DNA from: Candidatus Gastranaerophilales bacterium
Lineage (GTDB): Bacteria; Cyanobacteriota; Vampirovibrionia; Gastranaerophilales; Gastranaerophilaceae
Reading direction: 5' to 3'
NCBI GenBank assembly: GCA_944322935.1
Contig: CALUQO010000007.1
Coordinates: 1-64,000, forward strand
DNA: 64,000 nucleotides
Positions within the stretch are counted from its first letter, which is position 1. The number at the start of each line of letters is the position of its first letter. This document shows positions 4,338-24,483 of the stretch, one piece after another. The notes beneath the pieces were generated by a model. The model was given only the letters and a program-made list of their open reading frames with translations. It was not told the DNA's origin and did not search any database. The translations under genes were made by a program, and so were the position numbers.

Positions 4338-4610
4338 ATGGTCGATAAATATTTACAAAACAGAAAAATCCTTCAAAAAGAACTTGCCCAAATAATAAAA
4401 GACAGCAGGCTCGCCAAGGACAAGTCTATATCTTTGATTTCTGCTGAAATAGGTATGACAAAATCTATGTGGGCTGATATGGAAAAAGGAATAAAAGATC
4501 CGCAGTTTTCTACCATTGTAAGAATGTCAGAGGGCCTGGATTTACCGCTTACTGTTCTTATTGAAAAGCTTATGAGCCAGCTTCCCGAAAATTTTTCTTT
4601 AATAGAATAA
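4338..4610 (+). CDS. XRE-family helix-turn-helix regulator
   Basis: The 90-aa protein is essentially one Cro/C1-type helix-turn-helix domain: LAQIIKDSRLAKDKSISLIS, the recognition region IGMTKSMWADMEKGIKDPQF, and TIVRMSEGLDLPLTVLIEKL. It probably represses its own promoter through the palindrome just upstream. The final 8 codons (ENFSLIE and stop) recur as a direct repeat at 5367-5394, on the other side of the hicAB locus, suggesting this 3' end was a duplication or insertion point. No partner toxin gene is adjacent in the same orientation. Confidence 0.85.
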   Translation: MVDKYLQNRKILQKELAQIIKDSRLAKDKSISLISAEIGMTKSMWADMEKGIKDPQFSTIVRMSEGLDLPLTVLIEKLMSQLPENFSLIE

Positions 4611-4614
4611 AAAG
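4587..4614 (+). repeat. Direct repeat flanking hicAB, copy 1 (xre 3' end)
   Basis: These 28 bases, from the last codons of the XRE gene through its stop and the following AAAAG, recur at 5367-5394 with a single mismatch. Confidence 0.75.
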
Positions 4615-4658
4615 GTCTTGTAGTTTTTAAAATAAAACGCAAGCCCCGAAAATACAAG
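4615..4658. terminator. Terminator-like inverted repeat after xre
   Basis: GTCTTGTA (4615-4622) pairs with TACAAGAC (4651-4658), followed by AAAAAG. It lies between the convergent XRE and HicB genes and could end either transcript. The loop is long, so it is a modest candidate. Confidence 0.35.
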
Positions 4659-4717
4659 ACAAAAAGCTGGGAAATCTGACCGCAATTTTTTATAATATAA
4701 AAAGTTTTGAGTTGATT

Positions 4718-5077
4718 TTATGCTGATTCAAGGTATGCATCAACTGCTTCATCAATTAATTTATTTATTGACTTAGAAGTTGCCGCTGATTTTTTTGCCA
4801 ATTTGTAATGTTTTTCAGGCGTTGTGCGATAAGGTATTTGTCCTTTATAATCAACAGGCTTTAATGGCTCCTGTATTTTTACACCGGCGTCAAGACATGC
4901 GCTTAAGTGAGAATAAAGGGCATCTTCAATCATTTTGACTGCTTCTTCGATTGTTTCGCCTTCAGACATACAGCCTTTTAACTCAACAACCGAGGCAACA
5001 TAACATTTGTCTTCATCCGACCATTCAAAACGGTATGACCAGGGTAATTTCAAATAATAATTTAAGTCTTTATCCAT
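4718..5077 (-). CDS. hicB: HicB-family antitoxin
   Basis: The 119-aa product has the HicB core in residues about 12-70 (YRFEWSDEDKCYVASVVELK, then GCMSEGETIEEAVKMIEDAL), a degenerate RNase H-like fold. A C-terminal ribbon-helix-helix-like tail follows (SKSINKLIDEAVDAYLES). In hicAB modules HicB neutralises the HicA mRNA interferase and represses the operon. It has a strong ribosome site (AAGGAGG) inside the end of hicA, and the two frames overlap by a few bases. The partner hicA is broken by a frameshift, so this antitoxin may now be an orphan acting only as a regulator. Confidence 0.88.
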   Translation of the reverse strand: MDKDLNYYLKLPWSYRFEWSDEDKCYVASVVELKGCMSEGETIEEAVKMIEDALYSHLSACLDAGVKIQEPLKPVDYKGQIPYRTTPEKHYKLAKKSAATSKSINKLIDEAVDAYLESA

Positions 5078-5299
5078 TTATAGCCTCCTTGACAAGCTTA
5101 ATTGCATATAATTTCAACGGTTTTTGAGTTTTAACAAGAGTAATCGCTGATTTATTTGATTTAGTAAAGGTTACATGTGAGCTACCACCTCTGGGGGGTC
5201 TTTCGATAAAACCAAAAGAAATCAAAACTTTTTGGGCTTCTTCAAAAGTTATAGGTTCAAGATTATTAATTTTTGAATTAATTTATCTCGTTTACTCAT
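5070..5299 (-). pseudogene. hicA: Frameshifted HicA toxin
   Basis: Translating from the ATG gives MSKRDKLIQKLI, and a one-base shift then restores LEPITFEEAQKVL, FGFIERPPRGGSSHVTFTK and LKLYAIKLVKEAING before the stop. This is HicA in order and length, including the active-site histidine in GSSHVTF. The span is 230 bases, one short of 77 codons, so a single-base deletion near codon 12-14 explains the break. The gene overlaps hicB as in intact modules. Inactivation of the toxin with retention of the antitoxin is the simplest reading; a sequencing error in the A/T-rich start is the alternative. Confidence 0.8.
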
Positions 5300-7611: not shown

Positions 7612-7646
7612 AACCCAAAAAGGGCTTCTCGTCCTTGGCATCCTTG

Positions 7647-7684
7647 CCAAAAAGGACAGTAGGAAAAACCTCTGTCCTTTTTGG
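7647..7684 (-). terminator. Terminator directly after tRNA-Gly
   Basis: CCAAAAAGGACAG (7647-7659) pairs perfectly with CTGTCCTTTTTGG (7672-7684). Read on the minus strand, the stem starts in the CCA of the tRNA and ends in a T run. Confidence 0.8.
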
Positions 7685-7756
7685 AGCGGACGACGGGACT
7701 CGAACCCGCGGCGTCGACCTTGGGAAGGTCGCATTCTACCACTGAATTACATCCGC
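7682..7756 (-). tRNA. tRNA-Gly (anticodon CCC)
   Basis: The minus strand folds as a standard cloverleaf. The acceptor GCGGATG pairs with CGTCCGC, allowing G-U; the D arm includes TTCAGTGGTAGAA; the anticodon stem CGACC/GGTCG encloses TTCCCAA, giving anticodon CCC; the T arm contains GGTTCGAGTCC. U73 is typical of tRNA-Gly, and CCA is encoded. TATAAT lies upstream at about 7770-7780. Downstream, copies of its 3' tail form an array. Confidence 0.95.
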
Positions 7757-7794
7757 ATATTTTTATTTACTCTATTATAATATCACCAAATCAT

Positions 7795-22903: not shown

Positions 22904-23056
22904 TACATTTACATCAAAAGGTCGATGTAAAAAAATGTTAATATACATTAAAATAATAAATGAGAACTAGCAAAATTTTTTTTGTTGGGCTTTAAAATAA
23001 TATGAGGCATTTTATATGTCTTTTTGTGTAAGAGAGTAAACACAGGAGAATCCAAA

Positions 23057-23434
23057 GTGGTTGACAACCGTTCAGCAGGTTTTTTCGGAATCGGTGGCAG
23101 CTTTAATTTTAAAAGCGGCGACATATCCGGCACTGCCGCAAAAACGGCTGATGACCGCCAAAGTCCCGGCATGGAATACTTCCAACAGGGTGAATATCAG
23201 GAAGACGGCTCTTTTTCGGAATCTCAATTTGTGGACAGAAGCGCACAGCTTAGTGCCACGCTTAACTCTCTTGCGATGATGAATGTTGCAAATTTAATTA
23301 AAAAAAATAAAGAAGAAAAGACCAAGACCGAAGAGAACAAAAAGGACAAAGAAAAAGACAAAAATCTTGATGCAAAAATACCGGTGTGGGAGGATTATCA
23401 GGATGAAAACGAAGACTTTTTGTATGTAGATTAG
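23057..23434 (+). CDS. Small charged protein of unknown function
   Basis: The product is about 125 aa. I place the start at GTG 23057 because AGGAG lies 8 bases upstream; longer in-frame starts lack such a site. It has a Gly/Phe-rich beginning (SAGFFGIGGSFNFKSGDISG), a helical middle (SAQLSATLNSLAMMNVANLI) and a highly charged Lys/Glu stretch (KKNKEEKTKTEENKKDKEKD) before an acidic C-terminus. No signal peptide or membrane segment. I do not recognise a family. Confidence 0.6.
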   Translation: MVDNRSAGFFGIGGSFNFKSGDISGTAAKTADDRQSPGMEYFQQGEYQEDGSFSESQFVDRSAQLSATLNSLAMMNVANLIKKNKEEKTKTEENKKDKEKDKNLDAKIPVWEDYQDENEDFLYVD

Positions 23435-23470
23435 TCTGGTTTACAATATTTTAAAGCGTGTTTTTTAAAG

Positions 23471-23484
23471 TGGTGCCGCGTCTC
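23471..23484 (-). repeat. Degenerate tRNA-Phe 3' tail
   Basis: TGGTGCCGCGTCTC is the complement of the tRNA-Phe acceptor end with encoded CCA, with one change. It continues directly into the left half of the split hairpin repeat (CACTCTGCCGAG). Confidence 0.7.
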
Positions 23485-23507
23485 ACTCTGCCGAGAAAAA
23501 CAAGTTT

Positions 23508-23530
23508 GTAGGTTGGGCTTTCAGCCCAAC
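23508..23530 (+). repeat. Left REP palindrome
   Basis: GTAG followed by GTTGGGCT-TTC-AGCCCAAC, a perfect 8-bp stem with a 3-base loop. The GTAG tetranucleotide before the palindrome is the mark of REP sequences processed by RAYT transposases. Confidence 0.8.
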
Positions 23531-23621
23531 AAAATTAATAGGACACTAATCGGATCCGGAATTTTCTTTGATTTTGGAAGCTTATAGCCTAATTTAAAAT
23601 GATAAGCAACAGAGAGAATAA

Positions 23622-24152
23622 CTATTCAAAATCTATATCTTTAATATTTTCAATATCTTCCGAGCTCCCCCAGTCATTATCATATAAACCCTGTTTTACA
23701 AATTTGTGAAAAGAAGAATACCGCCAGTCCTTTACTTTATTTACAAGTCCGTGCTTCAGTGGATTGTAATGAATGTAATTAATTTGATTGTTTAATTCTT
23801 CTTGATCTTTAATTGTATGTTCAAAAAATCTTCTCTGAAATAAACCTTTTTCCCCTTTATTAACATAACCGTAGGTTGGGGTTTCCACCTCAACATTATA
23901 ATTTTTAGAGAAGTAATATTTTATTGATGTAATAATTTTGGGATATTCTTCAATATTCTCAGGATTTAGTATTACATGTATATGGTCGGGCAAAACACAG
24001 ATTGCAATAATTTCAAAACAAAAGAATTGTTTTGCATTTTTAAAGGCATGTCTTAGTAGTTCGATATTATCCACAAATATACTTTTTCTTTCATAAGAAA
24101 CAACAATTAAATGTACATAACTGTTTTTAATAAAAGCACGTCTGTAGTTCAT
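23622..24152 (-). CDS. REP-associated tyrosine transposase (RAYT, Y1_Tnp)
   Basis: The 176-aa protein is an IS200-like Y1 transposase domain: SYVHLIVVSYERKSIF, then the HUH metal site as LPDHIHVILNPEN, and the C-terminal LFQRRFFEHTIKDQEELNN with HYNPLKHGLVNKVKDWRYSS. These are hallmarks of RAYTs, single-strand endonucleases that bind REP hairpins. The catalytic tyrosine is probably in the C-terminal helical part; I could not fix it with certainty. Oddly, the segment VEVETPTYGY is encoded by a REP palindrome inside the gene (23871-23894). The domestic, non-mobile behaviour of RAYTs is known for the family. Confidence 0.9.
   Translation of the reverse strand: MNYRRAFIKNSYVHLIVVSYERKSIFVDNIELLRHAFKNAKQFFCFEIIAICVLPDHIHVILNPENIEEYPKIITSIKYYFSKNYNVEVETPTYGYVNKGEKGLFQRRFFEHTIKDQEELNNQINYIHYNPLKHGLVNKVKDWRYSSFHKFVKQGLYDNDWGSSEDIENIKDIDFE
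23871..23894 (+). repeat. REP palindrome inside the transposase gene
   Basis: GTAG followed by GTTGGGGT-TTCC-ACCTCAAC, an 8-bp stem with one G-T pair. It keeps the RAYT reading frame open on the minus strand, adding a VEVETPTYG-type peptide. Confidence 0.75.
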
Positions 24153-24181
24153 TTTTTAATTTTATAACAAATATTTTTTTT

Positions 24182-24205
24182 GTTGGGGTAGAAACCCCAA
24201 CCTAC
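24182..24205 (-). repeat. Right REP palindrome, inverted
   Basis: GTTGGGGT-AGAA-ACCCCAAC followed by CTAC, the complement of GTAG. It is the inverted counterpart of the left REP, and the inverted similarity extends outward into CAAACTTGTT. Confidence 0.8.
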
Positions 24206-24231
24206 AAACTTGTTTTCCGAGAGGGGAGAAC

Positions 24232-24259
24232 CAAGGACACAAAGGGATTTTTAGTAAAA
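24232..24259 (-). repeat. Degenerate internal tRNA-Phe segment
   Basis: GAACCAAGGACACA and GGGATTTT are shared with the tRNA-Phe complement at 24428-24450 (variable loop to anticodon arm), with one insertion and a change. It is not a functional tRNA. Confidence 0.6.
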
Positions 24260-24288
24260 AAAAGACTCATAAACTGAGTCTTTTTTCT
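24255..24288. terminator. Terminator in the tRNA-Phe tail array
   Basis: AAAAAAGACTCA pairs with TGAGTCTTTTTT around TAAAC. On the minus strand it directly follows the tRNA-tail copy at 24292-24305. Confidence 0.65.
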
Positions 24289-24291
24289 AAA

Positions 24292-24352
24292 TGGTGCCAC
24301 GTCTCACTCTGCCGAGAAAAACAAGACTAAATGTCTTGTTTTTTGAGAGGGG
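24292..24352 (-). repeat. tRNA-Phe 3'-tail copy joined to intact hairpin repeat
   Basis: TGGTGCCACGTCTC (24292-24305) is identical to the tRNA-Phe acceptor end at 24408-24421. It runs into CACTCTGCCGAG, a hairpin with ACAAG/CTTGT arms and the ACTAAATGT loop (24326-24334), then GAGAGGGG. This is the uninterrupted form of the repeat split by the RAYT element. A short inverted tRNA T-arm piece (GGTTCGATTCCGAG, 24361-24374) follows. Confidence 0.7.
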
Positions 24353-24379
24353 AGAACCAAGGTTCGATTCCGAGCAATA

Positions 24380-24406
24380 AAAAAACACCCGAAGGTGTTT
24401 TAAAAA
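24380..24406 (-). terminator. Terminator of tRNA-Phe
   Basis: AAAACACC-TTCG-GGTGTTTT (minus strand) with T runs on both sides lies directly after the encoded CCA of tRNA-Phe. Confidence 0.8.
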
Positions 24407-24407
24407 G

Positions 24408-24483
24408 TGGTGCCACGTCTCGGAATCGAACCAAGGACACAGGGATTTTCAGTCCCTTGCTCTACCAACTGAGCTAACGTGGC
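24408..24483 (-). tRNA. tRNA-Phe (anticodon GAA)
   Basis: The minus strand gives acceptor GCCACGT paired with ACGTGGC, a D arm with GCTCAGTTGGTAGAGC, anticodon stem GGGAC/.CCC with loop CTGAAAA (anticodon GAA), a T arm with GGTTCGATTCC, A73 and encoded CCA. Upstream, TTGACT (24579-24584) and TTATAA form a promoter. An 8-bp hairpin TTTGTAGA/TCTACAAA (24516-24538) lies in the leader. Confidence 0.96.

What the first reader, a model, noticed from the sequence alone, without database searches (positions are those of the whole stretch)
23471..24374. RAYT-REP element sits exactly in the loop of a hairpin repeat derived beside tRNA-Phe tails
The intact repeat at 24292-24352 and the split copy at 23471-23504 plus 24209-24236 have the same flanks on both sides. 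Where the intact copy has only ACTAAATGT, the split copy has about 704 bp with two inverted GTAG-REPs and a RAYT gene. This gives an empty-site/filled-site pair within one locus and suggests that the element targets, or replaces, hairpin loops. RAYTs are usually considered immobile, so a readable insertion event is unusual.
Basis: seen in the sequence. Interest (0 to 1): 0.72.

Follow-up and report, generated by a model that had tools for sequence, protein, structure and literature searches.

The report
RAYT-REP unit inside a hairpin's loop
In a gut cyanobacterium-relative, a small mobile-DNA unit normally thought not to jump as a whole sits exactly in the tip of a DNA hairpin that belongs to a repeat family embedded in broken tRNA copies, and related genomes show that the tip of this hairpin is repeatedly where foreign DNA joins.

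Summary
At 23485-24224 a 45-nt hairpin is split at its tip by 704 bp (23505-24208): two inverted GTAG-REPs around an intact RAYT (NCBIfam REP_Tyr_transpos, 131 bits against a cut-off of 80; PDB relative 4er8). The neighbouring unit (24306-24350) is the same hairpin unfilled. It is a tandem-array neighbour, not an orthologous empty site. The array consists of tRNA-Phe 3'-end copies.

The hairpin (HP) is a family of about 40 copies in this genome, spread through Gastranaerophilales. About half of 199 HPs lie in the D- or T-loop of truncated tRNA copies in tandem beside the intact tRNA.

Relatives: G020 has another HP tip filled by 1.3 kb carrying a different RAYT remnant (split ACT / CTAAATGT). 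G007 has a REP-like end abutting AAATGT. But most tip junctions carry non-RAYT DNA, some in genomes without a detectable Y1 transposase, and other REP-bounded units here do not sit in hairpins. So the tip is a preferred acceptor in general. RAYT catalysis at the loop's CT is plausible (RAYTs cleave at CT) but unproven. REPs inside palindromes are published; a whole REPtron in a hairpin with unfilled siblings is a new variant.

The parts
23470..23484 (+). tRNA-Phe 3'-end copy (GTGGTGCCGCGTCTC, antisense), start of the split array unit
   Evidence: matches the tRNA-Phe 3' end at 24408-24483
23485..23504 (+). 5' half of the split HP hairpin (ACTCTGCCGAGAAAAACAAG)
23505..23532 (+). GTAG-REP A (TTTGTAGGTTGGGCTTTCAGCCCAACAA), end of the inserted unit
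   Evidence: DNA fold z -4.0
23622..24152 (-). RAYT (REP-associated tyrosine transposase, 176 aa; PDHIH HUH motif and YIHYNP tyrosine motif intact)
   Evidence: Pfam Y1_Tnp; NCBIfam NF047646 131.4 bits, cut-off 80; PDB 4er8 E 7e-24
23871..23893 (+). third, intragenic GTAG-REP translated as part of the RAYT ORF
   Evidence: also present inside the RAYT ORFs of relatives
24181..24208 (-). GTAG-REP B (GTAGGTTGGGGTTTCTACCCCAAC plus AAA), other end of the inserted unit
24209..24224 (+). 3' half of the split HP hairpin (CTTGTTTTCCGAGAGG)
24225..24254 (+). tRNA-Phe interior copy (GGAGAACCAAGGACACAAAGGGATTTTTAG)
24255..24289 (.). terminator-like inverted repeat between array units
   Evidence: I8
24292..24305 (+). 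tRNA-Phe 3'-end copy of the unfilled unit
24306..24350 (+). intact HP hairpin (tip ACTAAATGT at 24326-24334)
   Evidence: DNA fold z -5.1
24351..24374 (+). tRNA-Phe T-arm copy following the intact HP
   Evidence: I9
24408..24483 (-). intact tRNA-Phe(gaa) at the end of the array

Best explanation
A complete REPtron (REP-RAYT-REP, 704 bp) entered, as one unit, the tip of a pre-existing HP hairpin in the outermost unit of a tandem array of tRNA-Phe 3'-end copies. SHOWN: the unit boundaries, the hairpin on both sides, unfilled siblings, and recurrence of HP-tip junctions in relatives. INFERRED: when the array is single-stranded (lagging strand) the HP folds and presents ACTAAATGT as a loop; the RAYT, which in known cases cleaves single-stranded DNA at CT next to a REP, joins REP-bounded DNA at the loop's CT (ACT|AAATGT). 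The few remaining loop bases were then lost, perhaps by template switching that perfected the new inverted repeat. The HP tip is a preferred acceptor in general rather than a sequence recognised only by RAYTs.
For: Exact tip position, 11-bp complementary arms and inverted REPs flush with the junctions. Bona fide RAYT. Second HP in G020 split as ...GTGACT / CTAAATGTCAC... by 1.3 kb with a different RAYT remnant (its fragment is 73% identical to the window RAYT, against 87% for the other G020 copy), both halves kept. G007 right junction CAACCTACG|AAATGTC. TnpA-REP cleaves at CT next to a REP, with GTAG as guide (PMC8266576). RAYTs look mobile in this genus: 12 Y1 places in 8 of 23 genomes, the RAYT loci read lie in different surroundings, and in G003 a REP-RAYT-REP unit lies inside another RAYT locus. 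Tip clustering of 14 independent 3'-half junctions: mean distance from the apex 5.5 nt, P 0.007.
Against: In the window the loop bases, including the CT, are gone, so cleavage at CT cannot be read directly. [quoted passage not shown] Only 7 of 71 REPs in the loci read have CT immediately before GTAG, near the 1-in-16 expected by chance. Other REP-bounded units do not lie in hairpins. Most tip junctions carry non-RAYT DNA. No orthologous empty site was found; relatives have rearranged arrays.
Confidence: 0.5

Rival explanations
1. The HP tip is a fragile site. The hairpin or cruciform is cut at its tip by a structure-specific nuclease (SbcCD-like) or stalls replication, and any nearby DNA is joined there by illegitimate recombination. 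The RAYT unit is only one passenger.
For: Tip or near-tip junctions with unrelated DNA: GNAT gene in G016, a 160-bp segment in G000's tRNA-Leu array, other repeat ends in G005, G009, G010, G018 and other species. Genomes G005, G007, G009, G010, G018 have no Y1_Tnp hit. Several keep only one hairpin half, i.e. replacement with deletion rather than insertion.
Against: Window and G020 keep both halves; the window insert ends exactly at REPs on both sides, as expected for a transposition product and not for random joining. RAYT fragments exist in some of the Y1-negative genomes.
Confidence: 0.35
2. The arrangement arose by recombination among repeats: a REP-bounded segment was copied into the array by gene conversion or template switching between inverted repeats, without transposition.
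For: The array is tandemly repetitive; the REP A side is partly similar to a dispersed REP-ended sequence lacking a RAYT (G000 C58); the left edge of the array is a lineage-specific synteny breakpoint.
Against: No donor containing HP-half+REP was found in 383 family genomes apart from one doubtful case; homology at both junctions would have to be very short.
Confidence: 0.1
3. Assembly artefact: a contig mis-joined in repeats.
For: Many contigs in this genome and its relatives end in these arrays.
Against: Both junctions carry hairpin halves that fit each other; the RAYT is single copy; G020 shows a comparable structure independently; obgE was truly relocated, not just broken off at a contig end.
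Confidence: 0.05

Closest known systems
REPtrons (RAYT/TnpA-REP with flanking GTAG-REPs)
   Same: RAYT passes the NCBIfam REP_Tyr_transpos cut-off, HUH and Tyr motifs, inverted GTAG hairpins on both sides
   Different: here the whole unit lies inside another repeat's hairpin tip; [quoted passage not shown]
REP dimers inserted in palindromes (Anabaena variabilis GTAG-15, T. roseum GTAG-23, H. neapolitanus CGTC-1; PMC3733652)
   Same: REP-type DNA inside a longer palindrome
   Different: there REPs without a RAYT, and for A. variabilis and H. neapolitanus no unfilled palindromes were found; here a RAYT-bearing unit with many unfilled siblings
IS200/IS605 elements (HUH single-strand transposition)
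   Same: related Y1 transposase and hairpin ends; expected to act on single-stranded DNA
   Different: scores below the IS200 family cut-off (31 against 55 bits); no tnpB, GTAG-REP ends
tRNA-end tandem repeats such as E. coli tyrT/rtT (from memory) and att-site remnants of tRNA-integrating elements
   Same: tandem units each carrying a copy of a tRNA end next to the intact tRNA gene
   Different: each unit here carries a hairpin element replacing about 5 nt of the D- or T-loop; both 5'-end and 3'-end types occur

Membership tests
RAYT / TnpA-REP | protein matches the RAYT family model above its cut-off | tested here: met
   NF047646 131.4 bits, cut-off 80; PDB 4er8 E 7e-24
RAYT / TnpA-REP | HUH and catalytic Tyr motifs | tested here: met
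   PDHIH and NYIHYNP in the ORF 23622-24152
REPtron | RAYT flanked by GTAG-tagged REP hairpins | tested here: met
   REPs at 23508 (+) and 24205 (-)
REPtron | REPs also dispersed as a family in the genome | tested here: met
   13 sites within 3 mismatches in G000 including the window's, against 3 for the reversed control: low copy
IS200/IS605 | TnpA above the IS200 model cut-off | tested here: not met
   31.2 bits against 55
REP-in-palindrome insertion (Di Nocera 2013) | REP unit within a longer palindrome that also exists unfilled | tested here: met
   split and intact HPs in the window; about 40 intact HPs in G000
RAYT-catalysed insertion | junction at the CT dinucleotide | tested here: inconclusive
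   G020 left junction at ACT; G007 right junction at AAATGT; CT lost in the window
RAYT-catalysed insertion | cleavage and strand transfer on single-stranded HP | not testable with these tools
   needs biochemistry

The most novel reading that the evidence does not exclude
HP arrays beside tRNA and tmRNA genes in Gastranaerophilales are a cassette-collecting system not described before: hairpin elements sit in the D- or T-loops of tandem tRNA-end copies, and the hairpin tip serves as the acceptor into which foreign DNA, including REPtrons and genes, is inserted next to tRNA genes.
Probability: 0.15. Interest if true: 0.85.

Novelty: new variant of a known kind. Interest (0 to 1): 0.55.

Why it matters
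Whether RAYTs, seen as domesticated transposases, still move REPtrons as a unit is open. This locus gives a readable product with unfilled siblings, and a second HP-tip insertion with a RAYT remnant, which makes a direct cleavage and strand-transfer test possible. The hairpin family in tRNA D- and T-loops, with recurrent foreign-DNA joins at its tip, is a further puzzle that could be tested across many genomes.

Tried and rejected
Simple allelic empty site: rejected, the two copies are array units, and the closest relative read (G012) has intact HPs but a displaced array behind an element with an integrase-like gene at tRNA-Phe. 'RAYTs generally target hairpins': rejected for this genus. Contig chimera at the hypothetical-gene/array join: unlikely, since obgE sits elsewhere in G000 behind another gene. 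HP mobilised by its own Y1 transposase: no support, the only full Y1 in G000 is the window RAYT. Clean empty site for the RAYT copy in G020 C25: relatives lack the RAYT there but the flank is not alignable. Literature searches for HP-like arrays gave nothing.

Full report
What is there. The window belongs to a bacterium whose HP hairpins are shared with MAGs labelled Candidatus Gastranaerophilales. Behind tRNA-Phe (24408-24483, minus strand) lie two tandem units built from copies of the tRNA 3' part. Each carries the hairpin HP = ACTCTGCCGA-stem-ACTAAATGT-stem-GAGAGG. The inner unit is intact. The outer one is split at the hairpin tip by 704 bp: REP A, a RAYT on the minus strand, REP B. Both REPs point inward, with their GTAG feet three bases from the hairpin arms. 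The RAYT is intact and bona fide.

Is it chance? The two hairpin halves match the neighbour over 44 and 28 nt (91% and 93%). The arms facing each other across the insert are perfectly complementary over 11 bp; among all cross-pairs of REP flanks from this genus 0.26% reach 11, and other REP-bounded units reach 2 to 7. The HP itself folds far better than shuffled sequence (z -5.1).

What HP is. Searching the genome for ACTCTGCCGA gives 47 hits against 2 for the reversed control; about 40 are intact hairpins. Among 74 distinct 45-nt HPs the stems differ but stay complementary: 85% paired over the arms, against 62% (maximum 66%) when 3' arms are dealt out at random. Loop conservation in the multi-genome set is partly by construction, because that scan asked for CTAAATG; in the G000 set, found by the 5' motif alone, most intact copies also carry CTAAATG. 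Of 199 distinct HPs with flanks, 97 lie in truncated tRNA copies. The left flank is the tRNA terminus, the HP replaces mostly 4 to 6 nt of the D-loop (GCAGT, GCAGC, GGAAT, GTAGC) or T-loop (GGAAT, GGATTC, GGAGTC), and the tRNA interior continues behind it. Arrays of 90-135 bp units run into the intact tRNA, or in L237 into what looks like tmRNA.

Empty and filled. It is not allelic. The left edge of the array is a rearrangement point: in relatives the gene at 23024-23434 is followed by obgE, which in this genome sits on another contig behind another gene.

Do RAYTs aim at the tip? In G020 the outermost tRNA-Phe HP is split between GTGACT and CTAAATGTCAC by 1.3 kb that begins with the 3' part of a RAYT, truncated at its internal REP. 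That fragment is 73% identical to the window RAYT, while another G020 RAYT copy is 87% identical, so the two insertions look independent. In G007 a REP-like end (CAACCTACG) abuts AAATGTC. TnpA-REP enzymes cleave at CT beside a REP (PMC8266576), and ACT|AAATGT would fit. Against specificity: 14 independent right-hand junctions in HPs cluster near the tip (P 0.007 for mean distance; 9 of 14 within 11 nt, P 0.017; without the window 8 of 13, P 0.035), but most carry unrelated DNA, and several of the genomes involved have no Y1 hit. Across 383 genomes of the family only the window and one doubtful hairpin in G002 show HP 5' half plus REP. These P values rest on small numbers and on junction positions that chance matches can shift by a few bases.

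Conclusion. Insertion of a whole REPtron into the tip of an HP is the best reading. That the RAYT did it is somewhat more likely than that the tip simply breaks and joins, because both ends are REPs and both halves remain, but the evidence does not decide. REPs in palindromes are known (PMC3733652) and REPtrons are said not to move as units (PMC6006769), so this is a new variant of a known kind. The hairpin family in tRNA loops is the more unusual thing, and I found no description of it in the papers searched.

Noticed in passing
window 24292-24483 and loci L276, L290, L228, L110, L108, L115, L113, L237: Tandem arrays of truncated tRNA (and apparently tmRNA) ends, each with an HP replacing about 5 nt of the D- or T-loop, next to the intact gene; tRNA 5'-end type and 3'-end type both occur, HP always oriented with the tRNA terminus on its 5' side.
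   Followed up: partly
window 23871-23893; same place in L096, L097, L100, L107: A GTAG-REP lies inside the RAYT coding sequence and is translated; it is kept at the same place in RAYTs of relatives.
   Followed up: no
window 23434-23470: Lineage-specific synteny breakpoint: MTAP-yggT-hypothetical is followed by obgE in relatives but by the tRNA-Phe array here; obgE sits at G000 C15:37111.
   Followed up: partly
L348 1254-1943 (G003 C64): A 621-bp REP-RAYT-REP unit lies within another RAYT locus, just after the start of its ORF and in opposite orientation; the older RAYT's interior is missing.
   Followed up: partly
L171 about 3043, L176 rc about 1439, L237 rc about 4905: A repeat end CCTTGTGAACG(C/T)CAATAATC(C/A)AA joins directly at GAC in three places, two of them HP tips (GACTAAATGTC): possibly another element with a preference for this site.
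   Followed up: no
L084, L163, L237: Another shared repeat end (GGACATTAAAATACA) joins tRNA-tail arrays at three different positions, so not all foreign DNA goes to the HP tip.
   Followed up: no
L076 (G012 C32) and L163 (G012 C17): In G012 an element with an integrase-like gene sits at tRNA-Phe and appears to have displaced the array, leaving a partial tRNA copy (47 nt of the 3' part) at its far side.
   Followed up: partly
L078 rc 4423-5085 and L163 2688-3350: The same 220-aa gene (start MNIITPVNLSHNPYKHPSF) is found in tRNA-Phe arrays of G016 and G012, as if carried between genomes as cargo.
   Followed up: no
L215 rc 2370-2510 and L279 rc 7620-7770: Longer HP variants (ACTCTGCCGAGCGGATTT...) with about 100 bp of nested palindromic content, in D-loops of tRNA copies.
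   Followed up: no
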